Assembly (NCBI GenBank): GCA_964036195.1
Contig: OZ038460.1
Coordinates: forward strand, 5,893,504 to 5,957,503
DNA from: Sphaerolaimus hirsutus
Lineage: Eukaryota > Nematoda > Chromadorea > Monhysterida > Sphaerolaimidae
DNA length: 64,000 nt
Direction: 5' to 3'
Part shown: in pieces, positions 2,270 to 33,294 of the stretch
Layout: each line of letters opens with the position of its first letter
How positions within the stretch are numbered: position 1 is the stretch's first letter
Made by a program: the position numbers and the translations under genes
The notes under the pieces: generated by a model
Seen by the model: the letters and a program-made list of their open reading frames with translations, nothing else
The model's database searches: none
What the model was told of the DNA's origin: nothing

Positions 2270-2275
2270 TATAGG
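2270..2275. other. Left 6 bp target-site duplication TATAGG
   Basis: TATAGG directly precedes the AGTAGTATGACCC terminus and recurs exactly after the other terminus at 33289-33294. A 6 bp duplication is the known size for Polinton integration. Confidence 0.9.
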
Positions 2276-2341
2276 AGTAGTATGACCCTTCTTTTTGACT
2301 GCACTTTCACCTTGCTAACAAGTCCATTTTCGTACACTTAG
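2276..2341 (+). repeat. Left terminal inverted repeat
   Basis: Positions 2276-2324 are the exact reverse complement of 33240-33288. The next 17 bp match imperfectly, ending in the shared CACTTAG. Such termini serve as origin (protein-primed) and integrase recognition sites in related elements; that role is inferred here. Confidence 0.9.
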
Positions 2342-2400
2342 ATTATATGTTAGTTTTGTTAGTGTTTATACTCAATCAACAATGTATAGGTTTATATATT

Positions 2401-2650
2401 TATTGAAGTCCTTGTTTACAGATGAGACACATGTTACTATTTTGTAATCAATGTTTTTAACAATGCGAATATTAGGTATTGTATATCTTTCACAAATGAG
2501 TTGAGCTACTCTATAACCAGGTTTATTGAAGTCCTTGTTTACAGACAAGACGTTGTATACGTGTTACTATTTTGTAATCAATGTTTTCAACAATGCGAAT
2601 ATTAGGTATTGTATATCTTTCACAAATGAGTTGAGCTACTCTATCACCAG
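2401..2650. repeat. Tandem duplication of the dUTPase 3' end
   Basis: Positions 2401-2520 and 2524-2650 are two near-identical direct copies differing by a few substitutions and a short indel. The right copy is the coding 3' end of the dUTPase gene. The left copy is a decayed duplicate downstream of its stop codon. Confidence 0.85.
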
Positions 2651-2957
2651 AATATACATAATAATCTTTATCACTATGATTATACAACATCATACCTACG
2701 GCACCATCATAGTCTTTGTCGATTACACCCGCGCCTACTTCTATACCAAAACGTAGAGAAAGCCCACTTTTAGAAGCGATACGTCCGTAACAACCATGTG
2801 GAAGTTTTATTCTTAAATCTGTTGGAATCCATCGTCTATCTTTTGCTGGTATCACAAAATCACCTGAACTTTTAAGATCGATTCCTGCTGAATATTCTGA
2901 TTTTCTTTCTGGTTCATGTGCATCGGGTGTTATTTTTTGAACTAGTAGGTCAGTCAT
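2523..2957 (-). CDS. dUTPase, trimeric type, lacking motif 5
   Basis: 144 aa. The enzyme would hydrolyse dUTP to dUMP and pyrophosphate, limiting uracil in DNA and feeding dTMP synthesis. Motif 1 (AGIDL), motif 2 (ASKSGLS), motif 3 with the catalytic Asp and the Tyr (GVIDKDYDG) and motif 4 (GDRVAQLI) are all visible in order. The Gly-rich C-terminal motif 5 that normally closes over the nucleotide is absent: the protein ends shortly after motif 4 in a Lys/Gln-rich tail, next to a tandem duplication of its own 3' end. The ATG overlaps the stop of the upstream minus-strand gene (ATGA), suggesting co-expression. It may be partly active or rely on another C-terminus. Confidence 0.9.
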   Translation of the reverse strand: MTDLLVQKITPDAHEPERKSEYSAGIDLKSSGDFVIPAKDRRWIPTDLRIKLPHGCYGRIASKSGLSLRFGIEVGAGVIDKDYDGAVGMMLYNHSDKDYYVYSGDRVAQLICERYTIPNIRIVENIDYKIVTRIQRLVCKQGLQ

Positions 2958-3436
2958 TTTTGCTCTGTTGTATCTGTATGTAGTTCCTTTAATTTAGTGT
3001 TAATACTGTCTTGGAATTCTTCAATGTTTTCAATATCATAGATTTCGACTCTGTCTCTAACTGGTATTTTTATTGCAAATAGGTAATGGCTTTCATTTAT
3101 ATCTATTTTATTATGTGAAAATTGTTCAACATAAGTATTGATAGCTGATGTTTTATTTGGGAATATTTCCATAGATGATCTTTTAAATATGTTGTCGTAT
3201 GTTTCACGTTTTTCATCCTTTGATAAATTTGATTTGTAATCTTTTTTCCAATTGATTGTTAGGAAATAAAAAATATAATGTGGTTTTAATATTCCTTTTT
3301 TTAATTGTCTTAGGTAATTTTTGAAACCTCTTTCGAATTGTTTTTTTCGATGTGTCCAATTCTGATTTTCCATTGGGGTTCTTTCACGTTTCTTTATAAT
3401 TTTGCCTTTCTTTTTTGGAACAATTTCATTAGCCAT
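2954..3436 (-). CDS. Uncharacterised basic protein (160 aa)
   Basis: I start it at the ATG at 3436 (MANEIV), because the frame further upstream opens only with GTG. The N-terminal 60 residues are strongly basic (KKKGKIIKKRER and more Lys/Arg), followed by aromatic-rich YIFYFLTINW, then a mixed charged C-terminus. No motif I recognise. It lies third in a tight minus-strand cluster of four genes and its stop overlaps the dUTPase start. A nucleic-acid-binding role would fit the basic N-terminus but is only a guess. Confidence 0.65.
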   Translation of the reverse strand: MANEIVPKKKGKIIKKRERTPMENQNWTHRKKQFERGFKNYLRQLKKGILKPHYIFYFLTINWKKDYKSNLSKDEKRETYDNIFKRSSMEIFPNKTSAINTYVEQFSHNKIDINESHYLFAIKIPVRDRVEIYDIENIEEFQDSINTKLKELHTDTTEQK

Positions 3437-9339: not shown

Positions 9340-10086
9340 ATGGATATGGATGCGAGAATTTTTTCACATAATGATGTTAAATTTGTAGATTGGAGGCAAT
9401 CTTATTTGATTGTAGGTCCTAGTCAAGCTGGTAAAACACATTTTTGCGTGAATTTTTTACGTGCAGCTTTGGATGGTAGTTTCGCTTTGGAACCACCAGT
9501 TGAAAAAGTTATTATTTGTTCGGGATCGAATCAGAGAAATCAAGAATCAATGTACCCAACACTTGTGGAACAATTTGGAGCAGAGAAAGTGAATATATTG
9601 GGACGCAATCAAGTCGTTAACTTGGACCAGTTGGAGGACGACTCAACACCAACTATTATAGTTTACGATGATTTACAATTGAATATGCCTATGTTATATA
9701 CTAGTAGATTGTTTTCCAATGTAGTAAGTCACGCTAAACATTTGATTGTTCTTTTCATGTCTCAAGATCCGTATTACGCAGCTCAAATGCGAACAATACG
9801 TCGTAATTGTTCATATTTAGTACTTTTCCGTTATCCCATGTCTATGGTTGTAAATAATTTGGCAACTTCGTGGTTTGGTCGTAGTACTCAGAGACACAAA
9901 TTTTTACAAGCTTATAATGATGCCGTAATGCAAAAAAAATATGGGTATTTAATAGTGAGTTTTCTAGCCAATACTAATCCTATGTTTCAAGTACGCTCAC
10001 ATGTATTTAATGAAGACGATTCTGATGATATTATCATTTACGATTTATCTAACGCTATTGAAGGAAGTAATTTTTATACGTTGTGA
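9340..10086 (+). CDS. Genome packaging ATPase (FtsK-HerA/A32 type)
   Basis: 248 aa. It would power DNA translocation into capsids. Walker A GPSQAGKT at residues 26-33 and Walker B TIIVYDD at about 105-111 are intact. Length and motif spacing match Polinton ATP proteins. Only 9 bp separate it from the polymerase stop, and its own stop overlaps the region just before the next ATG, so the genes may lie on one polycistronic transcript. Confidence 0.92.
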   Translation: MDMDARIFSHNDVKFVDWRQSYLIVGPSQAGKTHFCVNFLRAALDGSFALEPPVEKVIICSGSNQRNQESMYPTLVEQFGAEKVNILGRNQVVNLDQLEDDSTPTIIVYDDLQLNMPMLYTSRLFSNVVSHAKHLIVLFMSQDPYYAAQMRTIRRNCSYLVLFRYPMSMVVNNLATSWFGRSTQRHKFLQAYNDAVMQKKYGYLIVSFLANTNPMFQVRSHVFNEDDSDDIIIYDLSNAIEGSNFYTL

Positions 10087-10088
10087 AT

Positions 10089-10466
10089 ATGGTGTCTAAA
10101 AGAGTACCTAGAATAGTGAAACACACAGAAACATTGAGAAGAATCCATGAAATTGATACTGAATCTGGATTGAGAACCTATATAAAGAAGATACCGGAGG
10201 TTAAGCTTATAGTATTTTTGGATTGCTTGTATAATTCATCAGTGAATGAATCGTATCGCAAAAGTTTAACAAAAGGACAAAAACACCGTATCGATTATTA
10301 TCGACCATTAACTAACAGAGTATTATCCATCACTTGTAGTAATAGTAGAAGCAATTTGAATAAAGTTCGCAAAGTTTTGATTGAATACGCAACTGTTGGA
10401 TTTGTAAAGTCTATTCTATCTCCACTGGTGGTCAAGTTAAACAAACGATATGGAAACAACATCTAA
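10089..10466 (+). CDS. Small basic conserved-position protein (125 aa)
   Basis: I start it at ATG 10089 (MVSKRVPRIVKH), just after the ATPase stop; an earlier in-frame start would be GTG. Basic, with a hydrophobic stretch (VKLIVFLDCLYN) and a Ser/Asn-rich middle. No family recognised. It overlaps the next gene by 17 bp in another frame. Tight packing and intact reading suggest a real core gene. Confidence 0.65.
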   Translation: MVSKRVPRIVKHTETLRRIHEIDTESGLRTYIKKIPEVKLIVFLDCLYNSSVNESYRKSLTKGQKHRIDYYRPLTNRVLSITCSNSRSNLNKVRKVLIEYATVGFVKSILSPLVVKLNKRYGNNI

Positions 10467-11517
10467 GTCACAAAATAAAGTGAATGTTAAAGATTTTAAA
10501 TGGGTATTGAAAAAGTTCGCTACAGATGAATCTGATAAACAAGCGCTCGAAAAAATAATAAACCGCATTATTAATAGTGATCGCATTACGCTAACTGAAA
10601 AGCAGCATCTTTTAATAGCAGCTCGAGAAAAAATATCGGCTATTTTGAAGTCAAAATATAATTTTAAACCTTTTAATAAAGAGGAAACGATGTTAGCTGG
10701 ATTAAATGTGACAGGTAATGATAATGTGAGACAACCACCCTCGAGACAACCACCTTTGAGACAGCCGCCCTCACCCATACCAGATGGTGAACAAGACAGT
10801 AATCTAGGTCCAATCGATACACCAGAGTTCAAATCTACACCCGTACAATCTGATAATCGAAACCGACGTAACCGTCAATCCATGGAGGATGAACAATTTT
10901 ATTCACCGAGTGTCGTTTTTAAAGATCAATCATCAACTAGTCCGCATGAAGATAGGCTAAGTAGAAGTAAGATTCGTGGACGTAGGTCTACCATGACAGA
11001 CCCATCGTTGAGACGAAAAACTTTAACGAGACGTGTAGAATTTGATGATACTGGGTATTCACAAAAAACATCTGTTAGCCAAAAAAGAAAAACTGGAGAA
11101 ACATCACCTTTAATTCAAGGCACTCCACATTATGCACAGAAAAATGTCGATACTCCAAAAATGGCGAAAATGCTTCGATCAGTTGATCAACAATTGCAAA
11201 AGCGAAATCTAATAGTTGATAGTCAAAATAGAATATATTCACCTGATACAAAAACCCCAGTACCAGGTAGTGATTACAATGAAATTGTCCGTTATTTGGC
11301 TTCCATAAAAGCAAAAGAAACTGATGTAGGTAAGCATAGACCACCAGTAGGTCTGAGAGAATTGAGCAAACAAATGGTTAAATTACCATTGGAACACAAG
11401 AGACAGAATCTTCAAACTTACGTAAATAATATTTTGACTCCAAGGAGAAAGGGAAAAGGGACATTGTCACATGAATCGAGAGTTCCAATAAATTGGATTG
11501 AAAATGTCTGGAAATAA
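10450..11517 (+). CDS. Uncharacterised, largely disordered protein (355 aa)
   Basis: ATG at 10450. The N-terminal 80 residues look helical and charged. Residues about 94-110 carry RQPP repeats; the middle is Ser/Arg/Thr-rich with repeated RR pairs, and the C-terminus is basic (LTPRRKGKG). Position between packaging ATPase and integrase, and low complexity, are compatible with a structural or scaffold-like protein, but that is inference. It overlaps the integrase start by 14 bp. Confidence 0.7.
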   Translation: METTSKSQNKVNVKDFKWVLKKFATDESDKQALEKIINRIINSDRITLTEKQHLLIAAREKISAILKSKYNFKPFNKEETMLAGLNVTGNDNVRQPPSRQPPLRQPPSPIPDGEQDSNLGPIDTPEFKSTPVQSDNRNRRNRQSMEDEQFYSPSVVFKDQSSTSPHEDRLSRSKIRGRRSTMTDPSLRRKTLTRRVEFDDTGYSQKTSVSQKRKTGETSPLIQGTPHYAQKNVDTPKMAKMLRSVDQQLQKRNLIVDSQNRIYSPDTKTPVPGSDYNEIVRYLASIKAKETDVGKHRPPVGLRELSKQMVKLPLEHKRQNLQTYVNNILTPRRKGKGTLSHESRVPINWIENVWK

Positions 11518-12535
11518 CTATGACAAACTTTTAAGTTACTTATGGACTGGAAACTTGAATCGTGGGAGAATAAGTGCCAAAAAAATCACAAAAGGTTTAT
11601 TTTCAGCACCCGAAACATTGTATACAGAAGCTAAAAAGTATAAACCTGAAATAACTCGTAAACATGTATTAAGTTGGATTCAAAAACAACGTGGGTATGT
11701 TTTGACAAAACAAACTAAAAGAAGTAAACGAAACACTAGACCAGTAATAGCAACGGGTCTTTACAAAACTCTGTCTATTGATATAGCTTTTTTTGCACCC
11801 CCTAAACCTAATTACAATTATATTGGTGTGTTATTAGCAGTTTGCCCATTTTCAGATATGGTTCATTTTAGATTAATAAAGAACAAATCGGCTAAACACG
11901 TTAAAGTTAAATTTGCAGAAATTTTGGATGAAGTCAGAGCTAGGGGTGGTGCTCCAAATACCGTAACTTGTGACATGGCTAAAGAATTTCTTAGCAATGA
12001 GTTTCGTTCATTTTTAGAAGAAAATGAAATCAATCTTCGACCATTGGCATCATATCAAAAAAATAGTCCCGTAGAAAGGGTAATTGGAACTATCAGATCA
12101 CGTTTGGGAAGACATTTTGCAACCACAAAATATAAACGTTATTTTTACATTCTAAAACATTTGGTGGATTCTATAAACATGACACCCAGAAAGTATTTAA
12201 ACAACAAATCTCCTATAGAAGTTACCATTTTGGATGACAGAAAAATTTTTCAGAAGAGATTTTCTCCGAAATTGAATAGGCGTTCTCTTAGAAATATACC
12301 TAAAAATCGTAGACCAAAACCCAAGTTTAAACTGAATGACATTGTACACGCTCGCGTACACAAAACTTTTTCAAAGTCTACCGATCAGAAATTTAGTGAA
12401 AATACTTACTTTTTGGCTGAAATAAATACTAATTTAGTACCGTACACATACAAGATTTCAAAAGAAAGAGACGGTGAATCTAAGTTACCTACTGTATTCT
12501 ATGCAGAAGATTTGATATTAGCTACAGAACAATAA
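11504..12535 (+). CDS. Retroviral-type integrase (rve core)
   Basis: 343 aa from ATG 11504. It would join element ends to target DNA and make the 6 bp duplication seen here. Catalytic triad: D93 (SIDIAFF), D157 (TCDMAKEF), E191 (SPVERVIG), with 33 residues between the second D and E, slightly short of the usual 35. The N-terminal 80 residues are basic and I do not see a clear HHCC finger. The C-terminus is basic with an SH3-like flavour; no chromodomain recognised. Its stop overlaps the next start (TAATG). Confidence 0.93.
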   Translation: MSGNNYDKLLSYLWTGNLNRGRISAKKITKGLFSAPETLYTEAKKYKPEITRKHVLSWIQKQRGYVLTKQTKRSKRNTRPVIATGLYKTLSIDIAFFAPPKPNYNYIGVLLAVCPFSDMVHFRLIKNKSAKHVKVKFAEILDEVRARGGAPNTVTCDMAKEFLSNEFRSFLEENEINLRPLASYQKNSPVERVIGTIRSRLGRHFATTKYKRYFYILKHLVDSINMTPRKYLNNKSPIEVTILDDRKIFQKRFSPKLNRRSLRNIPKNRRPKPKFKLNDIVHARVHKTFSKSTDQKFSENTYFLAEINTNLVPYTYKISKERDGESKLPTVFYAEDLILATEQ

Positions 12536-12864
12536 TGTTAACTCGAAGCGCTGCGGCTGCGCAACCTTGTAAAGATGAAAAAGTTTATTTGAACACAATT
12601 CAGATGGAGGAATCTCATCCTTCATCACGAATGAGAAAAAAAGAGTGTACTGTGAACAAAAAGTTTATTATTCAATCTGGTTTGACAACGTTACAGTTGG
12701 TAACCGTTATTATTTTACTCATATTTATAAGCACGTATGGTTCATTGAATGATCAATCATTGCGTTACTTGATAAGTACGATACCACCGCACAATACGTG
12801 GAAAGTGTTGAATGACCTCATTTCATTTAATGCATCAGCAAATAATACTGAAAACAACACATAA
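12535..12864 (+). CDS. Small single-pass membrane protein (109 aa)
   Basis: One hydrophobic helix at about residues 47-69 (LVTVIILLIFI), a basic stretch just before it (RMRKKE, NKK) and an Asn-rich tail with possible glycosylation sites (NASANNTENNT). No signal peptide. By the positive-inside pattern the N-terminus would face the cytosol. It starts at the integrase stop (TAATG) and its own stop overlaps the next start the same way. A virion or host-membrane role is possible. Confidence 0.7.
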   Translation: MLTRSAAAAQPCKDEKVYLNTIQMEESHPSSRMRKKECTVNKKFIIQSGLTTLQLVTVIILLIFISTYGSLNDQSLRYLISTIPPHNTWKVLNDLISFNASANNTENNT

Positions 12865-13934
12865 TGGAAACACATTGTAATCAAGCGAATTTAGATTTGG
12901 TTTTAGATGGTGAAAATTTAACATTCAATTTTCCAAACAACTTACTATTTAACGCTAGCGAAAATTGGGAATTGGGAATTCAATATTTACACATTAGTGG
13001 TTTAGACAAGAGTACAAAATTTTTAAATTATTCATTGAGTGATTATTTCATTATTTTAGACATTGGTGGAAGTTTTTATTATACTGAAATAAATTTTGAA
13101 TCACTTTTTACTAAAATCGGTGAAACAAGAGTGCTAACAAAATTACCTTCTAAGGAAGATATTTTGTTGTGTATTTCGAGTTCAATTAACAATGCAGTCA
13201 AATGTGAATCTTTGTATGATCTTCAAAACAAGTGTGGTGATCATTGGTCATTTATTTTGCGAGAAATTGAAGCGTATCAAAAAGACAAAAATATTAAAAA
13301 TATTATCACGCGTAAGAAACGTAGGATAACCTATGAAAATGACGCAAATCTTTCTCGTATGGCGATAGCTGAAAAACGCGATTTAATAGATGAACATATT
13401 GGAGAATCATTGGAAATACTTAGATTAAAAAAAGTGCACCCTGAGAGTGAAAAAATGGAGAAAGGAGTAAATAAGGATAATATTTTGAAATATAAAATAA
13501 TAGATAGTTTAGTAGTTTTTGAAAAAAGTACTCAATGTAGCATGCTCATGTTTTCAAAAGCGTTGAAGGAATTGGTAGGTACAAAATTGGAATTTGTATC
13601 ATCTCAAATAGAAGATAATATATGTAATATGGAAGATGGGATAAGTAATTTTGTTGGACATAAAATGCTATACATTGTTTGTCTTTCACCATTACAAAAC
13701 ACCATTTTTGGATCAAACAAAGTTATTATTGGACACATACCATTAAATAATCAAAAAATAGTTGAAACTATCAATTATGAACCAAATAACATAACATTTT
13801 TTCCAATTGGATCTATTTTTACTGACAGATTGCATTTTGCTTTCTTAACAGAAGATTCAACACATGCATTATTTTTACCAAATGCGCGTATTTTTATGTC
13901 CGTAAGTATACGCAAACGACCGTTGTTACATTAA
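12864..13934 (+). CDS. Minor capsid (penton-like) protein, Polinton PX type
   Basis: 356 aa. It would occupy capsid vertices as a single jelly-roll protein. Support: position just upstream of core protein and major capsid; N-terminus with the LDLVLDGENLTFNFP beta pattern; and C-terminal strand ending FMSVSIRKR, typical of Polinton minor capsid proteins as I know them. A charged, Lys-rich insertion (about residues 130-215) interrupts the fold. TAATG start overlap with the preceding gene. Confidence 0.8.
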   Translation: METHCNQANLDLVLDGENLTFNFPNNLLFNASENWELGIQYLHISGLDKSTKFLNYSLSDYFIILDIGGSFYYTEINFESLFTKIGETRVLTKLPSKEDILLCISSSINNAVKCESLYDLQNKCGDHWSFILREIEAYQKDKNIKNIITRKKRRITYENDANLSRMAIAEKRDLIDEHIGESLEILRLKKVHPESEKMEKGVNKDNILKYKIIDSLVVFEKSTQCSMLMFSKALKELVGTKLEFVSSQIEDNICNMEDGISNFVGHKMLYIVCLSPLQNTIFGSNKVIIGHIPLNNQKIVETINYEPNNITFFPIGSIFTDRLHFAFLTEDSTHALFLPNARIFMSVSIRKRPLLH

Positions 13935-19048: not shown

Positions 19049-19074
19049 AGTCACTCACTACTTAGGAAACCAAT

Positions 19075-21322: not shown

Positions 21323-21599
21323 TACCTGCGCTTCAGCCCTCCTGCAAGCAGCGGCCCACTGGGAAGCGTGCAGCCTGAATGTTTAAAGTTGAGTTTTAAA
21401 AGTTTTTTGTCACTTAACACTTTTTATTACTTAGCTTGATTTTTCCTCAAAATTAAGTTGTAAATATACGAAATTAAGTGGTAATTGATAAGTAATATCA
21501 CCAGGTCAAGCAAAGCAATAAAAAGTGTTATACATCCAAATAAAAATTGGGATTTTTCAAAAATACATTAATTAATCCTCACAAAAACAAATATGAATT

Positions 21600-21840
21600 T
21601 TCCCCACCTAGGAACATTGGTGGCAGTGCACACGCGGCTGCGCCAGCCGTCGCCGCGGTCAACCGTCGTTGCGCAGCTCGCGTCGCCGCGGCGGCGTTCC
21701 GTTGTCGTGCCGTTGTTGCCGCGGTGGCGTTCCATTGCCGTGCCATTGTCGCCGAACGTCGACAACGGTTGCAGGCCAGCCAACTCGACGAACGGGTTGT
21801 TCGAACTATACACGGGAGGCCTGCAAAACATGTCAAATTA
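21600..21840 (+). other. GC-rich open stretch, possible exon (Ala/Arg-rich)
   Basis: After an acceptor-like CACCTAG (about 21613) the sequence is GC-rich and open in several frames, including an Ala/Arg-rich one (VAAAAFRCRAVVAAVAFHCR). Internal 27-45 bp repetition (GTGCCGTTGT, GTGCCATTGT) makes a repeat origin as likely as coding. Confidence 0.3.
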
Positions 21841-21867
21841 CAATACCAAATATATCAGAGATATTGA

Positions 21868-22230
21868 CAGTCCCGCACCCTGTAAAGTGTCAAGTAACTC
21901 TTAACCATTCCAAAAAAAACCTAAATCAGTCCCGCACCCTGTAAAGTGTCAAGTAACTCTTTACCATCCCAAAGTACACCTAAATCAGTCCCGCATCCTG
22001 TAAAGTGTCAAGTAACTTTACCGTCCCAAAGTACACCTAAATCAGTTCCGCACCCTGTAAAGTGTCAAGTACACCTAAATCAGTCCCGCACCCTGTAAAG
22101 TGTCAAGTAACTTTACCGTCCCAAAGTACACCTAAATCAGTTCCGCACCCTGTAAAGTGTCAAGTACACCTAAATCAGTCCCGCACCCTGTAAAGTGTCA
22201 AGTAACTTTACCGTCCCGCACCCTGTAAAG
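21868..22230. repeat. Minisatellite of CCCGCACCCTGTAAAGTGTC units
   Basis: About seven units of 40-60 bp containing CAGTCCCGCACCCTGTAAAG, GTCAAGTAAC and AAAGTACACCTAAAT, some lacking the middle part. Confidence 0.8.
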
Positions 22231-22266
22231 TGTGGATTGTCATGTTCCAATAATGATCCCATAAAA

Positions 22267-24525
22267 TTACTCAAAACCCATCAAGGTGTACCGGGAAACG
22301 TTGGCGGGTGGGTTTGCGTGTCTGGCGGGTGGGTTTGCGTATTTGGCGGGTGGGTATGCGGGTCTGGCGGGTTGGTGCGATGACAGGGAACCCCTGCGCC
22401 CGTAGCGCTGACTGGCACGGCGGCGCTCCTGCCTCTTGCGATACTGTGATTGAAAAGTGACAAATATTCAAGTGACAAAAAATGAGTTCATTTGTGAATT
22501 TTCGAAATGTGGTTTGAAAACTAGTATACGTAGGGTTGATGTTTTATATTGACACATTTTTCCTGGAAAATTCCCTATATCACCTTTTTCCTAGCTAACA
22601 GGCCACCAGCCACCACGTGAGTCACAAATGAATAGGTCATGAACACCAGTGTTTGCCATGACGTCCACGGGTTCGGGCAGGAACATTCGCATCGTACCTT
22701 GGGTGGGCAACCCGACGATGGCTGTGTAAAAAAATTGGTGTTTTTTGAGTAATTTAGCTATTTTTAAAGAGCTGAAAAATTTTTGTTTTACCAGTTGACC
22801 ATCACCAACCCTACAAAAACTACTTATTTGCATTACCAAACCTGTAAAATGTTTCATGTCATGTACATTAGATAATAACCTCTACAAACTGTAAAATACT
22901 CTCAGGGACGTATCCAGGATTTTTGAGCGGGGAGAACTGCTTGTTTACGGGGAGCTAGCAAAATTTGGAAAAATCAGAAATTGGTTTTCAGGGACCATCC
23001 GCTGTAAATACAATGAATGGGTAAGACAATTTTTCAGCTCTTTAAAAATAGTGAGATTATCTCACATCTCCAAAAACATTGAAAAAAAGAATAGTATGTG
23101 GAAATCACCACCACAAGAAGCATACACCACACCACAACACCAAAACACCACACCACAACTATTTGAGAAATAATAAGAGTTTGTTGACACGCCGGACCGT
23201 GGTCGGTGCAGCTTTTCTCCAGTGAAAAGCTGCCGGGTGTGCCCAACCACTTTCACTAGTGGTGGTGGTAGGGGTCGAAGTACTGCTGGGAGTTGTCGCG
23301 ATTGTAGAGCTGCTCGTAGTTGACGTGGTCGTGGATGTTGTTGTCGATGTGCTGGTACTGGACCTCGTTGAATATAAACTGAAAATTGACAAATCTGATA
23401 GTGAAAATTCTACAAGCACCATTGAAATGAAGGGGAATGGGGTAACCAAATCACCACAAATCACTACAATGAAATAATTGGGGGAAAAAAGCAGTTATTT
23501 ATGTTATGTAATAGTTACACATTCAACTTTTTAATATTTAAACATGAACCCACCTGTTTCCACAACGATGAGTGCACACATAGCCCAAGAATCTGGCACT
23601 ATTTACCACCATGTGGGTAGCCAATCCCATTGTGCAAACTTGTGGACACATTGACTCTGAGTTCCAAATTTTCTCATGCACTGATGTGTTGCAGGCTGGG
23701 CAGACTTTCTCGGGCGGGCAGACTTTCTCGGGCGGGCAGACTTTCTCGGGCGGGCAGACTTTCTCAGGCGGGCAGACTTTCTCGGGCGGGCAGACTTTCT
23801 CGGCTGGGCAGACTTTCTCCGGCGGGCAGACTTTCTCCGGCGGGCAGACTTTCTCCGGCGGGCACACTTTCTCTGGCGGGCAGACTTTCTCGGCTGGGCA
23901 GACTTTCTCGGCTGGGCAGACTTTCTCGGCTGGGCAGACTTTCTCGGCTGGGCAGACTTTCTCGGCTGGGCAAATCGGGCAGATCGGTGGCGGGCAGATC
24001 GGGCAGATCGGGCAGATTTGGCAGGCCGGGCAGATTGGACAGATCGAACAGACTTTCTCGGCTGGGCAGATCTGACAGATCGGGCAGACTTTCTCGGGTG
24101 GGCAGACTCTATCTGGTTTCTGTGGTCCATAGGCAATCAGCACTGGGCAAGGTCTGCACGGCTCACATGGCACGCACACTCTATCTGCTACCTCTTCTCC
24201 CATCACCACTTTGAATGTCACTGGTTTGTCAATAGTGGAATTGACGCTGTTGCTGTTGATGCTGGTGGTGTTGTCAAGGAAGCTGGTGGTGTTGTCAAAG
24301 AAGCTAGTGGTGTTGTCAAGGAAACTAGTGGTGTCAGGTGTGTCAACAGTGGTGTCGGGTGTGTCAACAGTAGTGTCAGGTGTGTCAACAGTGGTGTCAG
24401 GTGTGTCAACAGTGGTTTCAGGTGGATCAGTAGTGACCGCTGTGATGTTTGGGTAGTAAACTAGTAGTGAGTTAAACTATCTACCTAGTATAAGCATTTT
24501 ACTCACCACTGGTCACAGTCGGCAG
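22267..24525 (-). CDS. Mucin-like glycoprotein with CPxEKV hexapeptide repeats (spliced)
   Basis: Best model: exons 24525-24507 (19 nt microexon), 24439-23554, 23378-23248, 22721-22600, 22443-22267, all in phase. The large exon encodes Thr-rich TPDTTV repeats with N-glycosylation sites (DNTTS, NST), then CVPCEPC and about 17 CPAEKV/CPPEKV repeats, then a Cys-containing end. The next exon is a Ser/Thr mucin tract. The last two give a hydrophobic/acidic segment and a basic tail starting RKRQERRR, a furin-like site, then Pro/Ala repeats. Donors GTTGGG and GTTAGC are weak; if the third exon is not spliced it stops at 23159. A signal exon must lie upstream, perhaps that of the 26335 gene (phases fit). 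Surface or attachment role inferred. Confidence 0.5.
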
Positions 24526-24559
24526 CTGAAAATGGGTTTTTTTTTGTAAAATCAATAAT

Positions 24560-24895
24560 AAATAAGTTTTTTGTATTTCCTCGAAATACCTCTGAATATT
24601 TTTAACAGTTTATCAAAGGGGTGGGAGTGTGGGATTTTATCAATTGATTTCGTCAGAATTTATCGAAAACTCACTATTTGTATGCTGAGGGACTATTCGG
24701 TTTTTGTATTTATGTATTAACTTAATTTCACCACCCAAAAATTTTCATTTCACTTCAATTTGAGGGATAAATTCGAAGCTGGGTTTATTATTTTGTCAGA
24801 AATTTTCGTAATAATAATATTTAATTGAGAGGGTTTTAATTTGAGATAATATGATATTTCACCAAAAATGGGTATTTCGAGGAAAAACGGTGTAT
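24560..24895. repeat. MITE with TATTTCCTCGAAATACC termini
   Basis: Left end near TTGTATTTCCTCGAAATACC, right end near GGGTATTTCGAGGAAAAACGG. It lies between the mucin microexon and the next repeat block. Confidence 0.6.
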
Positions 24896-25190
24896 TGGGT
24901 TCCACACGCTAGTTGACATCGACACCAAATGTCAACTGATATCGATCTGAACATATGTAGGTTTGGTACCACACCCACTAGTTGACGTCGACACCAAATG
25001 TCAACTAGGTTTGGCACCACACACGCTAGTTGACATCGACACCAAATGTCAACTGATACCGATCCCGATTCAAATCTAACTGACGTTCAAACGCATTCTT
25101 TGAATTAGGAACGGAACATTAGGAACGGAACCAGTTGACATTTGGTATCGATGTCAACTAGCGTGTGTGGTGCCAAACCTACACAGTTTT
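24893..25190. repeat. Repeats of the CTAGTTGACATCGACACC family
   Basis: Several direct and inverted copies of ACACGCTAGTTGACATCGAC and AAATGTCAACTG. Related copies lie at 30.9-31.0, 37.9-38.1 and 47.6-47.8 kb. They seem to be TIRs of a MITE family. Confidence 0.65.
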
Positions 25191-26335
25191 CCCTCCCCCC
25201 CAAAAAAACACCAAATATTCACCAAAAATTATGCCAACCGAATTGTTTGGATTTGGGACGTCAGACCAGTCATTGCTCTGCGCTCGACGATCGGCAACTT
25301 CCGCGGCGGCGGCGGCCTGAATATTTATAAAATTGATTTTACTTTTTACTTACCACTTGACTGTTCAGAATTTGATAATTTAAATCACTACCATATTTAC
25401 TTAAATTACGCCCCCCGGGGTTTATTTTTTCATAGTAGAAATGCAAAAAACACACCATTTTAAGACTCTATAGATTTAGAGGTATTTTTAAGGGGTATAC
25501 TGAAATTACTTGATTCAAAACGAATGTTTTAAAACCAAAAGTGACAATTTTCTTCAAATTCAAAACTGAATATCCGGTAATGTTGCGAAACACGAACTTA
25601 CCAAATCAAACAAATCCTTCAGAGTTTCTCCCAGTTGACCATCGTCTTTCAGCCTGTCGCCGGACGCATCAGTGTCCTGTGTTTTAAAATAAAACATAAT
25701 ATTTGAAATACTAGGTATTTCGCTTTTTAAAACTGAATCCAAAACATGAATCTTCACACAAAAATTCCCGCGCCTGAAACCAATCCCTAAAATGACCCAA
25801 AACATGAGTACTAACCAAAAGGCATTTGTAGCTCTGGGCTTTCGGGAATAAATCGTCGAATCGATCGCATAAATATTTGCTAGGTGTTATAATAACGACC
25901 TTCAAAATGGACGTGTCGGCCACGTAACTGTAAAAAACAAAAATTTGTTAGTCAGTTCACGAAAATGTTATGTAAAATACCCTAGAAAATTTCGAATGTC
26001 ATGCAAAGTTTCAAAAGACATGTAAAACATCCTGTGAAAGGTTAAATGTCATGTAAAATGTCCAAAAATTCATGTAAAACACCCTGAAAAATATTTCCCA
26101 TTTTATTGCTGAATATACAAGTTTAGTACCGTATTTTCTTCCGTCAAAATATTGAATTTAACTCACTAAAACCCAAAAACTAATTTAACCTTTCAACTTC
26201 ATACTGGGCTTCGACCCTGCACACGGCCACAAAATCACTGCACTTGCATAACTCCCCGTCGCAGGGGTCTGCCAGCTGGACAGCTTGGAACAGTGCCAGA
26301 ACGCAGAAAACACGCAAAATTTCCCAGAGTGCCAT
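25179..26335 (-). CDS. Secreted protein with LRRNT-like Cys cap (four exons, 156 aa)
   Basis: Exons 26335-26190, 25927-25816, 25676-25602, 25316-25179; phases agree. A signal peptide (MALWEILRVFCVLALFQAVQ) is followed by CDGELCKCSDFVAVC, the C-x4-C-x-C-x6-C spacing of LRR N-terminal caps, then a short hydrophobic strand region and CDRFDDLFPKAQ. Exon 4 begins with an Ala run and ends in low-complexity sequence next to a MITE, so it may be a late acquisition or a wrong call. Exon 3 can instead join in phase to the mucin microexon at 24525, making one long secreted protein. Donor GTTAAA after exon 1 is weak. Function unknown; extracellular by its signal. Confidence 0.5.
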
Positions 26336-26844
26336 TCCGCTGCCGAGAATTATTGTAAAGTTACGTGGCACCTGTAAAGACTACACGTGTTAATCATTGT
26401 TGGCACGCTTCCAACACGAGACATAAATCAGTGCGAGGGTAGAGTATGATGTCCGCCGAGTGTAACAAAAATGTTAAGTAAATCAGAGTAAATAAAAATA
26501 GAGAAAATTAAAACATAAAATCATAGAAAAAAGTTTCGGCCTCCCCGAAATGATTCTATCATGCTTTTTCTTTTTCAAATAAATCTATTCAAAAGTTGGC
26601 ATAATTCCAATTTCTTTGTACCTGTTTACATAAGTAAAATTTCAGTATACTTAGTTGACAATATCCTCAAAATGTGATAAAACGACCGACAATGGTTGTT
26701 TTTAATATGTAACACACTATCGGAACACATACTTGTTCACTGTCATAAATATTAGTATAAAAACACATGTATCCAAAAATGATTTTGGAATTATGCCAAC
26801 TTCCCCGAATGTTCACCCCGTGCCCAAACAAAACACGTAAATAA

Positions 26845-27166
26845 ATACGAATGGGTGTTCTCAAAGTAACGAGATACCTACCATAACAAAATTTCGTGTC
26901 ACATGTACATAACATACTATTCAAGGTGTGAATTTGGTAGTTACAGATAAATTTGAACATGCATCTTTAGTTTTAGAAAGTAATAGCACACTGTGTTCCT
27001 GATACATTTGTACCGATTTTCATGAAAATGTTCAACATTATGTCTTGTAAAATTTCAAATTTATGCGTGACTGTCAAATTCACACCTTGAATAGTATGTT
27101 ATGTACATGTGACACGAAATTTTGTTATAGTAGGTATCTCGTTACTTTGAGAACACTCATTCGTAT
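26845..27166. repeat. Long inverted repeat, arms about 92 bp
   Basis: 26845-26936 is nearly the exact reverse complement of 27075-27166, with a loop of about 138 bp. No gene seen between about 26400 and 27450 apart from this. Confidence 0.8.
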
Positions 27167-27449
27167 AATTTGAAACACAATTAAAGCATGCATTTTATAA
27201 CATATTTATGTCAAATGCAAATTAACTTTCACTTTCACAAATTCAAAAATGTAAATAAAAGAATAATTTCTGATCAAACACTACCGAAAATTCATATCTA
27301 AATATTCAGGTGTCTATGTAATTCATGTACACATGACCTTGACATATTGAACATGCATTTTATCACCTAAATTAGGTAGGAACATTACACAACCCACAAC
27401 CTCGATCCACCTGACTAGAGTTGACAAAAAATAAATAAAATGTATAAAA

Positions 27450-28679
27450 TCAATGTTCCTCAGCAGACATGCGCAATAAATACCTTATAAAAAGTACCAA
27501 AAAATACTTATTTATTGCATACTCTGCCGTGCATGAATTAAGCATTCTTTTGAATAAATCGCGCCCACGCTTTAAGCGTTTGTGGTTGCCATTGCTAAAA
27601 AGATTGAGTACTTTTTTCACACATTCTGGTGAAGTACTCAAAAAAATAGCAGCATATTGTTTGATTTCATAAACATTGACTGAAGATGCTTGGAATTGAT
27701 TAAAAAACAACATTCTACATAAATATGGTGTAAACTCAAAATTGTGGACAATATTGATAATTTGATTGATTGACACTCTATGACTTTCATCAGTAATGTG
27801 TAAATCACAAATCAACACAGCCATTATATGTTTTGCAATTTGATATGAATACAGTGCCTGAAATTTAAAAAGTTTATTTGAAAAATTCTAAAAATTTAAA
27901 ATTCTATAAAAATCTCACTATGCCTGCCATATATGCAACGTCATTGACTGCAATTTTTTTGTCAATCTGACCATTGTATAGCCAAAATTTATTCAATAAG
28001 TTGTTCTGTAGTACATCACCAAGATTCCTAAAAAATTTGAAAAAATTCCATATACAAATATTTTTATATACAAATATTTAAACTCACTGTATATTCTTGA
28101 CTTCTGTTTTCTCAAAATTTCTGTCTAAATGACCAAAGAAAAATGGGAATTGACTTGACAAATTTTCACCCATTTTTGGACAATATCCTGATTGAATTTC
28201 TAGGCCAAAATTGACAGTTTTTTCAACAGCACTGCCTTTAATTGGGTTTGGTGTCAAATATGGATTCATGATCTGTTCTGGTATATTGTTGTTTTCTAGT
28301 GTAGGTAGGAAAACTTGTGCAGATTTACTATGACAAGCTTCATCTGGTGTATCTAACACCATTACTTGTGAACCCCCTTCATTGCTGCAACATGGTTCCT
28401 GAGTTGTGTCTGCTAATTTTCTCTTTAATGTTTTTTCTGATTTGTCTGATTTGGATGCATTCTTGTCTTCAAAAAATTGTGACAAAAAATCCACACCAGT
28501 ATGTAAATTTTCCAATGCTTCAGGTAAATCATGCCTGAAAAACACATTTCATATCATACTCAAATATCACTATCTAAATAAATACATTCACATAAAAATA
28601 TATTTATCAACACCACAATGTTTCAGACTAACTGGGAATCTTCCCGTAGGTCAGGTGTTGTGTTCCAAAATTGTTCCAT
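27450..28679 (-). CDS. Uncharacterised four-exon protein (336 aa)
   Basis: Exons 28679-28633, 28534-28088, 28027-27919, 27857-27450. Reading phase is kept through all three introns (98, 60, 61 bp; donors GTTAGT, GTGAGT, GTGAGA). The N-terminal half is polar and probably disordered, with a basic KTLKRKLAD segment and a Cys pair. The C-terminal half (about 200-336) is compact, helical and Leu/Phe/Tyr-rich with a basic HKRLKRGRD patch. No signal peptide; probably nuclear or cytosolic. I do not recognise the family. Intact phase over four exons argues for a functional gene of the accessory arm. Confidence 0.7.
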
Positions 28680-29117
28680 GTTTTCATGAAAATAATTGTA
28701 TAACAGTTTACAAAAATGCTATTTTATCCATAAATCTGAAAAATTGAAAATTTCTATATAAATTTAGTAAACCAAACAGTGACCTAGTACTTTTGGAACA
28801 TGAAATTCAAAAATTCGTACAACAAAAGAAAAGAAGTGAACAAAGACAGTAAAGGTTCACTGATCTATCTGTGGCCTAGGTGTAAGGGTAATTTGTGGTT
28901 TTTGTCCACCAAAACAGTGTTTGAAAAAGCAAATGGATGTTGACTGCCCAATTTTTTCTTATGTCGCATAGAATATACCCATTCCCAGGGAAATTTACCA
29001 ACAATTTAGAGCAATAAAAAAAACACTTTTGGGACTTTTGCTTAGGTAAAATTACTGTTCCATTGCTAAACAAAATTTATGCTGATGCAAAATTACTCAC
29101 ATGAGTACTATAAAAAG

Positions 29118-29661
29118 TCAGTTCCTTCCAAGAAGAATATCATAAAGTACAGAATCCTTACTAGAACTGGATCCATCAGACCCATTGCATTTACCTAGAA
29201 AATACATAGATAAATATATACCGTAAATCCTTGAATAAGTCCTCCCCCTCAAATAACTCCCCCTGTTATGAGCGTGAGGAAAAAATAACTCCCCCCTTAA
29301 ATAACTCCCCCCTCTGATCGATGCCGCAAATGCGAATGCAAATGCAGTTCAGCGTGCAACGATTAACTATTTTGAATGTTTTACCTGCTACGGCGACGTA
29401 AATTATACTCTTATATATGCAGTATTCTCCTTATTTTATACTTACTTTTATACTTATTTTCCTGAATATTCTGACGAAAAAATAACTCCTCCCCTCAAAT
29501 AACTCCCCCTCGAATAAGTTCCCCCTCAAAAATTCTGACAAAAAATAACTCCCCCGGGAACTTATTCAAGAATTTACGGTATATATATTTCATTTTTCAA
29601 AAATATTTACCTTTTGAAATTATTATAAAAGTTCCTCCATTTTCAATGTTTGCATAATATT
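29118..29661 (-). CDS. Two exons of a small, possibly secreted protein
   Basis: Exons 29661-29611 (phase 1 in) and 29194-29118 (ending in a stop) join in phase across a 416 bp intron that holds a MITE. They encode EYYANIENGGTFIIIS and an acidic/Ser-rich tail GSDGSSSSKDSVLYDILLG. A donor at 29991-29990 in the signal-peptide reading frame starting at 30042 would join in phase, giving about 59 residues. 28690-29118 otherwise shows no supported gene. Confidence 0.35.
29222..29585. repeat. MITE with ACCGTAAATCCTTGAATAAG termini
   Basis: Left TACCGTAAATCCTTGAATAA and right TTATTCAAGAATTTACGGTA are exact complements. The interior is CCCCCTCAAATAACT-rich. It lies inside the intron just described. 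Confidence 0.8.
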
Positions 29662-29793
29662 CTGCACAACATAAATAACAATATTAAGCATTCTAAAAAC
29701 AAAATTTTCGTCAGAAAATATAATTTTAAAAAACAATTAAATACAAAAATTTTAAATATTCTAAATAAATTTCAAAATACAAATCTCACAACT

Positions 29794-30042
29794 TTATTTG
29801 GAATGCTCAAAGGGATTCAAAAACGTTTCAAGTTCTGAATTTTCATTTATTACACAGTAAAAATCTTCTCTAGACCCGCATATACAAATTCTAGATAAAT
29901 AACTTTGACAAAAAATATTTATAGGTAATTTAGTAGTAGTTTGTATTGATAAAATTTGAGGTGTAGTGTTTGTTTCATTGTATTGTTCACCATTTAGAAA
30001 ATATATAGTTACAAAAATAATGCAGATTCTGAATACAATCAT
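29794..30042 (-). CDS. Small secreted Cys-containing protein (82 aa) or signal exon
   Basis: ATG 30042 gives a clean signal sequence (MIVFRICIIFVTIYFLN), then N-glycosylation sites (YNETNTT) and CICGSREDFYC, reminiscent of the Cys cap in the 26335 gene. The frame stops at 29794. Alternatively only the first 52 nt are used, spliced to 29661. Its start overlaps, head to head, that of the plus-strand gene at 30020, so one of the two starts is probably internal to a longer transcript. Confidence 0.45.
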   Translation of the reverse strand: MIVFRICIIFVTIYFLNGEQYNETNTTPQILSIQTTTKLPINIFCQSYLSRICICGSREDFYCVINENSELETFLNPFEHSK

Positions 30043-32485
30043 GACTAATCCTGAGGAATACATAAATAATGATATAGTCATGACCAATATGCATCCAGTA
30101 CCCCCAGAATGGGGGCAGTTGCCATTTATGCCTCCTTACCAACTAATCCCCCCACCTCCTCCCGGTCAAAATGATGAAAGAATTGATGTGCCACATCAAC
30201 CGCAACCATTGGTTGCCCTGGAAGCTTTGGCGCAAAACCCGATGGGTCTGGCACCTGCTCGGCCACCGGCACCTGGACCGGAACCGGCACCTGGACCGGA
30301 ACCGGCACCGGTTCCGGTGATGCAGAACAACGACAATTCCGACTCAGATGAAGATGATTTGGATAGGGACAAGCGTCAATTCAGGTGACAGTCCCACATC
30401 TAGTAAAAATAAAGCATATTTTTTTAGAATTAAGCAGTAATACCGTATCTCCTCCAAATACCCCCCACCCTCCTCAATATGGTGATTATGAAATAATAAC
30501 TAAACCCCCCACCCGACAAAATACCTCCTCAATATGGTGATTATGAAATACCCCCCACCCCACGAAATATATCATCAAAATAGTAACTATGAAATAATTA
30601 CCCACCCACTCAAAATATACCCCACCCCACGAAATAGTTGCACAAAATGGTAACTATGAAATACTTACCCACCCCCCTCGAAATATCCCCCCAAATTGTG
30701 AGTACAGAGAATGTACATATCATGTGTTTTTTGATCTAGTAATATGGAATGTAAATTAAAAAACAATTCTAAAATAATTTGCTTTATTTTTACTAGATTT
30801 GAGACTGTTCTCTAGGACGATTGTGAGAAATGCCAAGCAGGACCACCTACAATCGGCTGACAGCTGGTAACAATTTCAAACCCTTTCAAATATTAACTCA
30901 AGTATCAAATGTACCAGTTGACATTTGGTGTCGATGTCAACTAACGTGTGTGGTACCAAACCCAGTTGACATTTGGTGTCGATGTTAACTGATACATTTG
31001 ATACTTGAGTTAATATTTGACAGGAATTGAAACTGATACCAGGCGCGACATAGAAAGAATCAAACGCCGAATCTTTGTGAGTTACTTAACTTAAAAATTT
31101 TAATTTTTATTTTTTGAAATACCACACTTGATCAATTCAATTGCAGCCCAACGACTCCGACCTATCGGACGAGCTCGAAGAAGTCCCTACCTACAGACAG
31201 GCTAAAAAAGCAAAAATTGTGCGCAGAATTCAGAAGATGCAGCGCAGAATGCGTGCGGCTCATTACATGCAGCAGCGACAAGGAATCGGTCGCGATGGTG
31301 GTGACGGACCTGGCGGCGGCGGCGGGCCTGGCGGCGGCGGCGGACCTGGCGGCGGCGGACCTGGCGGCGGCGGACCTGGCGGCGGCGGACCTGGTGGCGG
31401 GAACTCTGGCGGCGGTTTTGGAGTCGGCGGCGGGGACTCTGGCGGCAGTTTTGGAGTCGGCGGCGGGGGCTTTGGTATTAGAGGCGGCGGAACTGGCGGC
31501 GGCGTTGCTATTGGCGGATGTGATGGGGTCGGCGGTTTCTGCGAGCGTCATCGCCTTCAAATTGCCGCTCGACCAGTGGGCAAAATTGCCGGACGCAGGC
31601 GCCCGAGCAAGCGCAGTCATGGGGGCGGACGCCTCACCCATCGTGGCTACTACAGCGAAATTAGCAGCAGTGACGAAGGTTGCGGCAAAGCTACCGAGAA
31701 AGAATGCAAAATTGTGAAACACAGTAAGTGAACATTTAACTTACTCTATATTCTCTCGAGTAAACCCCTAGAATAACTCCCCACCCTTGAATACTTCCTC
31801 CACTCAAAAAACTCTGATGAAAAATAACTCCCCTGAATAAAATGTCAATTTCTTGGTGTTTAAGATTCAAAATTGATTGAAAATTAAAATTAAAATTATG
31901 TATAAATTGTAACAGTATTTGAAAATCAAAAAATTACAGTGAAACTGATGGCGTTCAAGGAAATTATGACGCACAAGGAATCTGCGGCATTTGTTACCGA
32001 CTGCTTCAAGTGTAAGGCGGAAATCTACAAGGAGGATAAATGCCCTTTGGTGAAAATTGGTTAGTTATAGATTGGTATCTCTGGATCGGGATCGGTACCG
32101 AAGTTGGTACTTTTCGGAAATGGGATTGGGACATTCAAAAATGTTTCATATTGAGAAATTGTTTGCTAATATACTGCAAAAATAGGTCAAAATAAAAATT
32201 TGGGATCGGGATTGGGATTTCAAAGTGTAGGGTATAAAGTGAAAATACAATTCAATATTTATAAATAGGGCATTATTCCTCACAGAAAAGGCGAAAATGA
32301 TTGTAAAAATCATTAAACACAAGAGTATGGTCAAAATGGGGGCTGAAAAGTGCAATAAGTGCAAAATGGGCGGCGACATTTCCGAGGACGACATTTCTGC
32401 CGAAAATGGGGATATATTGAAAGATTATGGCAGCTGCAGCTGTCATACTTGCCCTCACGTGAGGGTTAATCCGAGGAAAGATTGA
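30020..32485 (+). CDS. Six-exon Pro/Gly-rich protein with C-terminal Cys clusters (448 aa)
   Basis: Exons 30020-30384, 30816-30866, 31043-31076, 31147-31723, 31940-32059, 32286-32485; every junction keeps phase. Exon 1: Pro-rich (APGPEPAPGPEPAP) then acidic SDSDEDD. Exons 2-3: basic. Exon 4: acidic start, basic KKAKIVRRIQKMQRRMR, a Gly-rich tract of about 90 residues, and a basic SKRSHGGG end. Exons 5-6: CFKC, CNKC and CSCHTC clusters that could bind zinc. The layout (acidic, basic, Gly-rich hinge, metal-binding end) suggests a nuclear regulator; no homologue recognised. The third exon uses a weak acceptor inside a MITE-like repeat. The ATG at 30020 could instead follow an upstream exon. AATAAA near 32511. 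Confidence 0.65.
30440..30725. repeat. MITE-like CCCCACC-rich repeats in intron 1
   Basis: TACCGTATCTCCTCCAAATA start and repeated ATGGTGATTATGAAATA / CCCCCACCCC units fill the 431 bp first intron of the Gly-rich gene. Confidence 0.55.
30885..31022. repeat. Inverted-repeat MITE in intron 2
   Basis: TTAACTCAAGTATCAAATGTA and its complement TACATTTGATACTTGAGTTAA bound two direct copies of CCAGTTGACATTTGGTGTCG. The element ends 20 bp before exon 3. Confidence 0.75.
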
Positions 32486-32519
32486 TTGATTGTGTGTGTG
32501 TGTGCATAGGAAAATAAAA

Positions 32520-33220
32520 AATTGCTGGCCTTAATTTTTCCTTATTTTTTTACACAACAAAACATCAAACTTGTTTTTTGCAACTTACTCGAGTACCTAA
32601 AGTGAATAAGTAAAAATTGAACTAATGGTCCAGCTTACACTAATTATCACACATATTTTCGAAAACTCATAAATAACCTTTGAACGTGTTTGAATTTTCC
32701 ACAATAAATGAGTTTTCTAAAATTCGTATGAAAGTTTATCGAATACTTAAAATGAATAAGTAAAGAGTAAAAAAATTTATTTACTGGAGTATTTAAAGTG
32801 AATAAGTAAAAAGTGAACAAATAAGTAACTTTCTCGAGTATCTAAATTGAATATTTAAATTTCAAAAATGCCTAAATAAGTAAATAAGTAAATACAAAAC
32901 TTATAAACATTTATTTGTCACCTATTTTTATAATGTACTTTTAAAAACGATTTTATTTACCTTATACTGTGTAAATTAATAATTTCTACGCTACAAATAA
33001 ATTGTTATAAAATATTCGGACCTACAGAAATGCATCTCATCAAAATAAAAGATAACGCAAAACCTAAAATGCGAACATCAGAAATGTCTGCAGAAACTCA
33101 CACAAAAAATATTTAGCTAAAGATGTACGATTAGGCAATTTACGAATGCTAAAAACGCAGCAGAATTCTGGATAAAATGACAGCTGTTGAAACGTGACTG
33201 ACTATACACTACTAGAAAAA
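32520..33220. other. AT-rich stretch without genes
   Basis: Loose repeats of GAATAAGTAAA and GAGTATCTAAA; no open frame of note. It leads into the right terminal repeat. Confidence 0.5.
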
Positions 33221-33222
33221 AA

Positions 33223-33288
33223 CTAAGTGTGCATAAATAGACTTGTTAGCAAGGTGAAAGTGCAGTCAAAAAGAAGGGTCATACTACT
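33223..33288 (-). repeat. Right terminal inverted repeat
   Basis: 33240-33288 is the exact complement of 2276-2324 and ends GGGTCATACTACT. The inner 17 bp match imperfectly. Confidence 0.9.
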
Positions 33289-33294
33289 TATAGG
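33289..33294. other. Right 6 bp target-site duplication TATAGG
   Basis: Identical to 2270-2275. Host sequence follows; it aligns by eye with the region upstream of the paralogous gene at 63690. Confidence 0.9.

What the first reader, a model, noticed from the sequence alone, without database searches (positions are those of the whole stretch)
2270..33294. 31 kb Polinton-like element with intact core and exact TATAGG duplication
Seen: 49 bp identical terminal repeats, 6 bp direct duplication, and the whole replication-packaging-capsid-integration set in intact frames. Known: Polintons of about 15-20 kb carry these genes. Inference: this copy is nearly twice as long because of an accessory arm of spliced genes, so it may represent an undescribed large lineage of adintovirus-like elements.
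Basis: partly seen in the sequence, partly recalled or inferred. Interest (0 to 1): 0.9.

Follow-up and report, generated by a model that had tools for sequence, protein, structure and literature searches.

The report
Polinton provirus with host-like right arm
A virus-like Polinton element lies between its own two ends in the genome of an unnamed eukaryote, but about half of its unusual 31-kb length looks more like host DNA than virus, so whether that half travels with it is the open question.

Summary
In detail: 31,013 bp (2276-33288), inverted ends identical over 49 bp and starting AGTAGT, exact TATAGG duplication, eleven of eleven core frames tested open. PolB, packaging ATPase, retroviral-type integrase, adenain/S273R-type protease and dUTPase are supported by sequence; the major capsid protein by position, a profile match and low-confidence fold matches; the minor capsid protein only weakly. 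Two environmental contigs from a Limnohabitans bin share the core order.

The "undescribed large lineage" is not established. From about 19-20 to 32 kb the arm shares short repeats with the host flanks, unlike most of the core. The nine hairpin-like inverted repeats found in the element all lie right of 17,442. One spliced gene is almost free of CpG, as in an old methylated host gene. Exon phases agree at five of five junctions tested. The last 1.3 kb gives conflicting signals.

I favour host DNA captured before this integration (0.5) over later insertion into an ordinary ~18-kb provirus (0.3) or a native accessory arm (0.15). The deciding test, other copies in the host assembly, could not be run: all 23 requests did not complete.

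The parts
2270..2275 (.). target-site duplication TATAGG, left
   Evidence: sequence
2276..2344 (+). left terminal inverted repeat, begins AGTAGT; first 49 bp identical to the right end
2523..2957 (-). dUTPase, 144 aa
   Evidence: Pfam dUTPase 2.7e-30; 40% identical to L020 dUTPase over 108 aa
4813..9330 (+). Polinton-type family B DNA polymerase, 1505 aa; conserved acidic motif residues kept
   Evidence: 10 relatives; invariant columns
9340..10086 (+). genome-packaging-type ATPase, 248 aa
   Evidence: AAA_22 4e-6; tblastn to L022/L016/L015/L020, E 5e-12 to 3e-10; L020 relative matches Pox_A32 1.7e-6
10450..11517 (+). basic protein, 355 aa, in the place of a 228-263 aa ORF of L016, L020 and L015
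   Evidence: position only
11504..12535 (+). retroviral-type integrase, 343 aa, D93, D157 and E191 kept; no chromodomain seen
   Evidence: rve 2.4e-5, below cut-off; A5 invariant columns; A5 profile to integrase structures
12535..12864 (+). small protein, 109 aa, one hydrophobic stretch by eye
   Evidence: no PHROG
12864..13934 (+). probable minor capsid (penton-like) protein, 356 aa
   Evidence: position; weak C-terminal profile match to relatives, E 0.08
14008..14454 (+). very basic core-like protein, 148 aa
   Evidence: sequence; ORFs of 151 and 155 aa in the same place in L016 and L020
14551..15972 (+). major capsid protein, 473 aa
   Evidence: profile of L016/L020 ORFs E 1.4e-4 over 339 columns, controls 0.54 and 0.81; low-confidence model matches jelly-roll capsids
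15975..16478 (+). maturation-type cysteine protease, 167 aa (H50, D66, Q99, C106 kept; catalytic roles recalled)
   Evidence: A4 invariant columns; A4 profile to S273R 4.3e-9 and adenain 4.7e-4
16563..17376 (-). dUTPase-like gene, two exons (17376-17139 and from 17080), 58-bp intron
   Evidence: Pfam dUTPase 0.075, below cut-off; phase check
17443..17695 (.). mirror-image promoter candidate: two copies of TATAAG plus TCAGTC facing outwards between divergent genes
17753..18271 (+). putative zinc-binding protein (Cys pairs by eye), 172 aa
   Evidence: no family
18836..31900 (.). arm stretch with host-type repeats; limits approximate (motif from 18,836, shared k-mers from about 20 kb)
23538..24476 (-). 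frame with Thr-rich and CPxEKV repeats, probably part of a spliced gene; exon-like pieces also at 24525-24507 and 25676-25602
27451..28534 (-). spliced gene, resolved exons 28534-28088, 28027-27919, 27857-27451; 1 CpG in the first two of these
31132..32485 (+). spliced gene, resolved exons 31132-31723, 31940-32059, 32286-32485, Gly-rich then Cys-rich; 5' part not resolved
33220..33288 (-). right terminal inverted repeat
33289..33294 (.). target-site duplication TATAGG, right

Best explanation
This is an endogenous Polinton/Maverick virus whose linear genome was integrated by its own retroviral-type integrase, making the TATAGG duplication (terminal structure shown; process inferred from the family). 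The core is taken to copy its DNA with a protein-primed PolB, the AGTAGT end allowing slip-back at initiation, to package it with the ATPase into a jelly-roll capsid and to mature it with the cysteine protease (inferred from homology). The right arm is largely host-derived DNA carrying a methylation-scarred gene, other spliced genes and small host repeats. I think it was captured before this integration, so that the 31 kb moved as one unit as replicating DNA, perhaps too long for the standard capsid. Host-likeness of the arm is supported by several tests; capture before integration is inference (about 0.5).
For: Termini and duplication enclose the whole 31 kb. AGTAGT fits the (AGT)2//(ACT)2 end motif and 6-bp duplications reported for Mavericks (PMC8097293 passages). 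Core order is shared with L016 and L020. 14-mers shared with the flanks: 115 against 12.2 expected over the 12 windows 20001-32000, but 16 against 14.7 over the 15 windows 5001-20000. Motif TATTTCCTCGAAATACC, chosen after it was seen in arm and flank: 5 in the arm, 5 in the flanks, 0 in the core; 0.21 expected in all. BLAST repeats shared with the 3' and 5' flank: 267 and 66 of 14,595 arm bp, 0 of 16,430 bp for 2270-18699. Of 9 inverted-repeat pairs (at least 30 nt, arms at most 400 bp apart; two share one place) 9 lie right of 17,442; separate insertions after integration should hit both halves. As a whole, 17400-33288 is nearer in dinucleotides to the flank 33.3-48 kb (42) than to the core (71). 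CpG o/e 0.10 and 0.08 with TpG/CpA 1.58 and 1.56 at 27776-28775, against 0.93 in PolB. Open core ORFs and agreeing exon phases suggest recent integration.
Against: No second copy was examined, and a block of host DNA inserted later would look the same. Core windows 3001 and 4001 also exceed expectation (6 vs 1.7, 9 vs 2.2 with 14-mers), and with 12-mers 16001 and 17001 do (18 vs 10.2, 19 vs 5.9). A second host motif tried had 7 matches, all in the 3' flank and none in the arm. By 1.5-kb windows 6 of 9 at 18776-30776 are nearer the 3' flank (one nearly tied) and 3 nearer the core. Low CpG also occurs elsewhere: 0.41 at 3776 in the core, 0.56 in the MCP gene, about 0.44 over 2.6 kb at 58.4 kb; the third exon of the arm gene has 0.58. 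31 kb exceeds the 12.7-24.6 kb of intact vertebrate Mavericks.
Confidence: 0.5

Rival explanations
1. An ordinary Polinton of about 18 kb integrated at TATAGG; later a block of about 13 kb of host DNA (gene plus small repeats) was inserted into its right arm.
For: Removing about 18,836-31,900 would leave about 17.9 kb (arithmetic), inside the published Maverick range. The last window, 32001-33000, shares no 14-mer with the flanks (0 vs 1.6 expected).
Against: No direct or inverted repeat above the script's threshold joins 16.5-20.9 kb with 30.0-33.2 kb. The gene at 31132-32485 runs in phase across the would-be right edge. By dinucleotides the tail 31.9-33.3 kb is nearer the 3' flank (32) than the core (93), so it does not look like a left-over viral end.
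Confidence: 0.3
2. The arm is a native viral accessory module and this is a large Polinton lineage; the small repeats were picked up during long residence of its ancestors in host genomes.
For: Exon phases agree at 5 of 5 junctions; the mirror promoter and a spliced dUTPase-like gene adjoin the core; polinton-like viruses of 14-40 kb are reported in protists (PMC12220804, abstract start in search listing).
Against: None of the 16 arm frames submitted reached a Pfam cut-off; CpG depletion at 27.8-28.8 kb; repeats shared with the flanks. L016 and L020 show no such arm, but end 1.9 and 2.8 kb after the protease.
Confidence: 0.15
3. The two termini belong to different Polinton copies that happen to flank host DNA, and the TATAGG match is chance.
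For: Host-like DNA lies between the termini.
Against: A 6-bp match has chance about 1/4096 without target preference; no inner terminus is seen; termini are identical over 49 bp.
Confidence: 0.03

Closest known systems
Vertebrate Mavericks (PMC8097293, passages)
   Same: 6-bp duplication, (AGT)2-type ends, TIRs from 46 bp upwards, intronless core ORFs
   Different: Intact ones are 12.7-24.6 kb; here 31 kb with a spliced, repeat-rich arm; host unknown
Polinton-like contigs L016 and L020 binned in Limnohabitans MAG20
   Same: Same order PolB-ATPase-x-integrase-mCP-basic-MCP-protease; dUTPase in L020
   Different: 19-28% identity (dUTPase 40%); dUTPase lies right of the protease in L020, at the left end here; integrase carries a chromodomain (L016); TBP gene right of the protease; no TIR found, so their full length is unknown
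Adintoviruses (Starrett 2021, recalled; paper not held)
   Same: PolB, retroviral-type integrase and jelly-roll capsids (recalled)
   Different: Published accessory genes could not be compared here
Cotesia sesamiae bracovirus protein R9XLG5
   Same: Best fold-library match of both capsid models; 28% identity to the L020 protein
   Different: Listed as 'uncharacterized'; 14% identity to the window protein

Membership tests
Polinton/Maverick (polintovirus) | Family B DNA polymerase of the protein-primed type | tested here: met
   DNA_pol_B_2 2.7e-33, relatives, motif residues invariant among 11 sequences; protein priming itself not testable
Polinton/Maverick (polintovirus) | Retroviral-like integrase | tested here: met
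   rve 2.4e-5, below Pfam's cut-off, supported by A5, a profile that includes three relatives
Polinton/Maverick (polintovirus) | Packaging ATPase | tested here: met
   relative matches Pox_A32
Polinton/Maverick (polintovirus) | Adenain/Ulp1-type protease | tested here: met
   A4 profile incl. two relatives; relatives match Peptidase_C5 and C48; the window protein alone matched no structure
[quoted passage not shown]
   Model pLDDT 37; 13 of 23 matches with E up to 0.001 are capsid, poxvirus 62-kDa, adomavirus LO7 or penton proteins, but TM by query length is 0.27 or less; capsid nature of 62-kDa and LO7 proteins recalled; low-confidence models can give meaningless matches
Polinton/Maverick (polintovirus) | Minor (penton) capsid protein | tested here: inconclusive
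   position and E 0.08
Polinton/Maverick (polintovirus) | TIRs and 6-bp target duplication | tested here: met
Large (about 30 kb) Polinton lineage | Several copies sharing the same arm and termini | not tested
   The genome search did not complete (23 requests)

The most novel reading that the evidence does not exclude
The Polinton moved as a 31-kb unit carrying a captured, formerly methylated host gene locus with introns and small host repeats, which would make Polintons natural vehicles for whole intron-bearing host genes.
Probability: 0.4. Interest if true: 0.7.

Novelty: new member of a known kind. Interest (0 to 1): 0.45.

Why it matters
Mavericks are suspected of carrying genes between animal species (recalled). 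A structurally complete copy whose arm bears intron-bearing genes and a methylation-type scar would let that be tested directly: find the donor locus and other copies. It would also show whether such units can outgrow the roughly 17-kb size that PMC8097293 (passages) considers constrained. If the arm is a later insertion, the case is an ordinary new Polinton.

Tried and rejected
Nested LTR or TIR element spanning the whole arm: none found by repeat searches. An inverted pair at 18994-19024 and 25412-25442 could bound a smaller nested element; I saw no flanking duplication by eye. Inner right terminus near 16.5-18.8 kb: none. Relatives in viral contigs by exact terminus DNA, MCP, PolB alone and ATPase: none confirmed. 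MCP in the protein database: none among 4573 candidates. PolB alignment in viral contigs: 14 distant loci; apart from PolB the matches of other ORFs had E 0.027 or worse. Host identity through the neighbouring reverse-transcriptase gene: 8 relatives, no host name. Rfam at gathering score and ARAGORN: 0 in the window. The 17443-17695 palindrome was first taken for a small transposon; the twin TATA/TCAGTC arrangement made a mirrored promoter more likely. AlphaFold models of the window and L020 capsid proteins were poor (pLDDT 37.1 and 39.5).

On re-checking I withdrew an earlier wording that the tail is core-like: shared 14-mers are absent there but its dinucleotides are nearer the 3' flank.

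Full report
Observation. The termini are real: inverted repeats 2276-2344 and 33220-33288, 49 bp identical from the outside, with TATAGG on both sides. The terminal 18-mer was found only there. The unit is 31,013 bp. AGTAGT ends and a 6-bp duplication match the (AGT)2//(ACT)2 ends and 6-bp duplications described for vertebrate Mavericks; intact ones measure 12,723-24,620 bp, mean 16,862 (PMC8097293, passages seen).

Core. Eleven of eleven ORFs tested between 2,523 and 16,478 are whole. dUTPase, PolB, ATPase and integrase have Pfam matches (AAA_22 just above its cut-off, rve below its cut-off). Direct PDB searches with the capsid, protease, PolB and ATPase proteins gave nothing useful, and the MCP found no relative among 4573 candidates. 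PolB found 10 relatives at 23-28% identity, one named from Globodera pallida. An alignment of these led to nine contigs in prokaryote genome bins; six of the nine are in one Limnohabitans bin, presumably misbinned eukaryotic virus or host DNA (inference). Two of them, L016 and L020, repeat the order PolB-ATPase-x-integrase-minor capsid-basic protein-major capsid-protease. PolB of L020 is split over two overlapping frames; its dUTPase lies right of the protease, not at the left end as here. Profiles with these relatives allowed tests that single sequences did not: protease profile A4 to African swine fever virus S273R (4.3e-9) and adenain (4.7e-4); integrase profile A5 to retroviral integrase structures; MCP profile A6 to the window MCP at E 1.4e-4 (probability 52%) against controls 0.54 and 0.81; minor capsid only E 0.08. 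A4 and A5 include the window proteins; A6 does not. MCP profile A2 matched no solved structure.

AlphaFold models are poor (pLDDT 37.1 and 39.5), and low-confidence models can give meaningless matches; yet the fold library returns many jelly-roll capsids. Of 23 matches with E up to 0.001 for the window model, 7 are named capsid or major capsid, 3 poxvirus 62-kDa, 2 adomavirus LO7, 1 penton, 3 uncharacterized, 6 nameless, 1 other. Of 9 for the L020 model, 5 are named capsid, major capsid or penton and 4 uncharacterized. TM-scores are low. That is support, not proof.

Arm. Right of the protease come a two-exon dUTPase-like gene, a mirrored promoter candidate (twin TATAAG...TCAGTC facing outwards) and a putative zinc-binding gene. 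Then the sequence changes. 14-mers shared with the flanks are at chance over 5-20 kb (16 vs 14.7), far above chance over 20-32 kb (115 vs 12.2) and absent at 32-33 kb (0 vs 1.6). Windows 3001 and 4001 also exceed chance, as do 16001 and 17001 with 12-mers; window 2001 was left out because it contains flank. A motif picked because it was seen in arm and flank occurs 5 times in the arm (from 18,836), 5 in the flanks, never in the core; another host motif occurs only in the 3' flank. BLAST repeats join 267 arm bp with the 3' flank and 66 with the 5' flank, and none of 2270-18699 with either. The nine hairpin-like inverted-repeat pairs (at least 30 nt, arms at most 400 bp apart, 15-base seed) all lie right of 17,442; two share one place and one is the mirrored promoter. 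In dinucleotides, 17400-33288 as a whole is nearer the flank 33.3-48 kb (42) than the core (71), but the core is mostly coding, which may account for part of this. By window, 6 of 9 at 18776-30776 are nearer the 3' flank; 10 of 11 at 2276-17276 are nearer the core that they helped to define; the tail 31.9-33.3 kb is nearer the 3' flank (32) than the core (93).

Genes of the arm. With borders chosen by eye, exon phases agree at five of five junctions: two in the 27.5-28.5 kb gene, two in the 31.1-32.5 kb gene, one in the dUTPase-like gene. Frames within 22.6-26.4 kb, with Thr-rich and CPxEKV repeats and two exon-like pieces with AG/GT borders, may form another gene; their phases were not checked. 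None of 16 arm frames submitted reached a Pfam cut-off. The 27.5-28.5 kb gene has 0 CpG in its 447-bp exon, and 27,776-28,775 has 2 CpG with TpG/CpA excess; PolB has o/e 0.93. Its third exon (0.58) and the MCP gene (0.56) are intermediate, and window 3776 of the core is low (0.41). Strong depletion with TpG excess is the usual scar of germline methylation (general knowledge), so I infer that this stretch lived in a methylating genome far longer than the core.

Reading. Separate insertions after integration do not explain hairpins and host motifs confined to one half. Either the unit carried the arm when it integrated, or a block entered later as one piece. I found no element-type boundary for such a block, and the 31.1-32.5 kb gene runs in phase across its would-be right edge; I therefore lean to capture before integration, without proof. 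Removing the block would leave about 17.9 kb, which keeps the rival alive.

Comparison with print. Six literature searches showed me, in the rows listed, no animal Polinton of about 31 kb with a spliced arm; only listings and some passages were seen, and many journals are not held. Protist polinton-like viruses of 14-40 kb are reported (PMC12220804, abstract start) and protist insertions of 15-30 kb (PMC10120064, passages), so the length alone is not new.

Noticed in passing
L016:11565-12119 and L020:10649-11197 (minus): Both Polinton-like relatives carry a TATA-binding protein gene (Pfam TBP 1.8e-36 and 1.5e-36). A literature search with this term listed 12 of 146 papers, none of the 12 with the term.
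   Followed up: partly
41536-44478, minus: 980-aa frame with a GIY-YIG domain near its N-terminus and weak reverse-transcriptase similarity: perhaps a Penelope-like element with permuted domains (name recalled).
   Followed up: partly
48000-62500: Dense repeat array in the 3' flank; some copies are 1,285 bp apart.
   Followed up: no
1729-2009: Palindromic repeat just left of the element, with 24 aligned pairs between it (1752-2105) and the 3' flank.
   Followed up: no
17443-17695: Mirror-image promoter candidate with two TATAAG...TCAGTC sets between divergent genes.
   Followed up: partly
11504-12535: The integrase lacks the C-terminal extension seen in three aligned relatives, which in L016 is a chromodomain by Pfam.
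   Followed up: partly
L019 start: Contig begins with TAACC repeats, like arthropod telomere repeats (recalled).
   Followed up: no
19529-19744 and 23698-23965: GC-rich 38-bp tandem repeat, and an 18-bp repeat coding for CPxEKV units.
   Followed up: no
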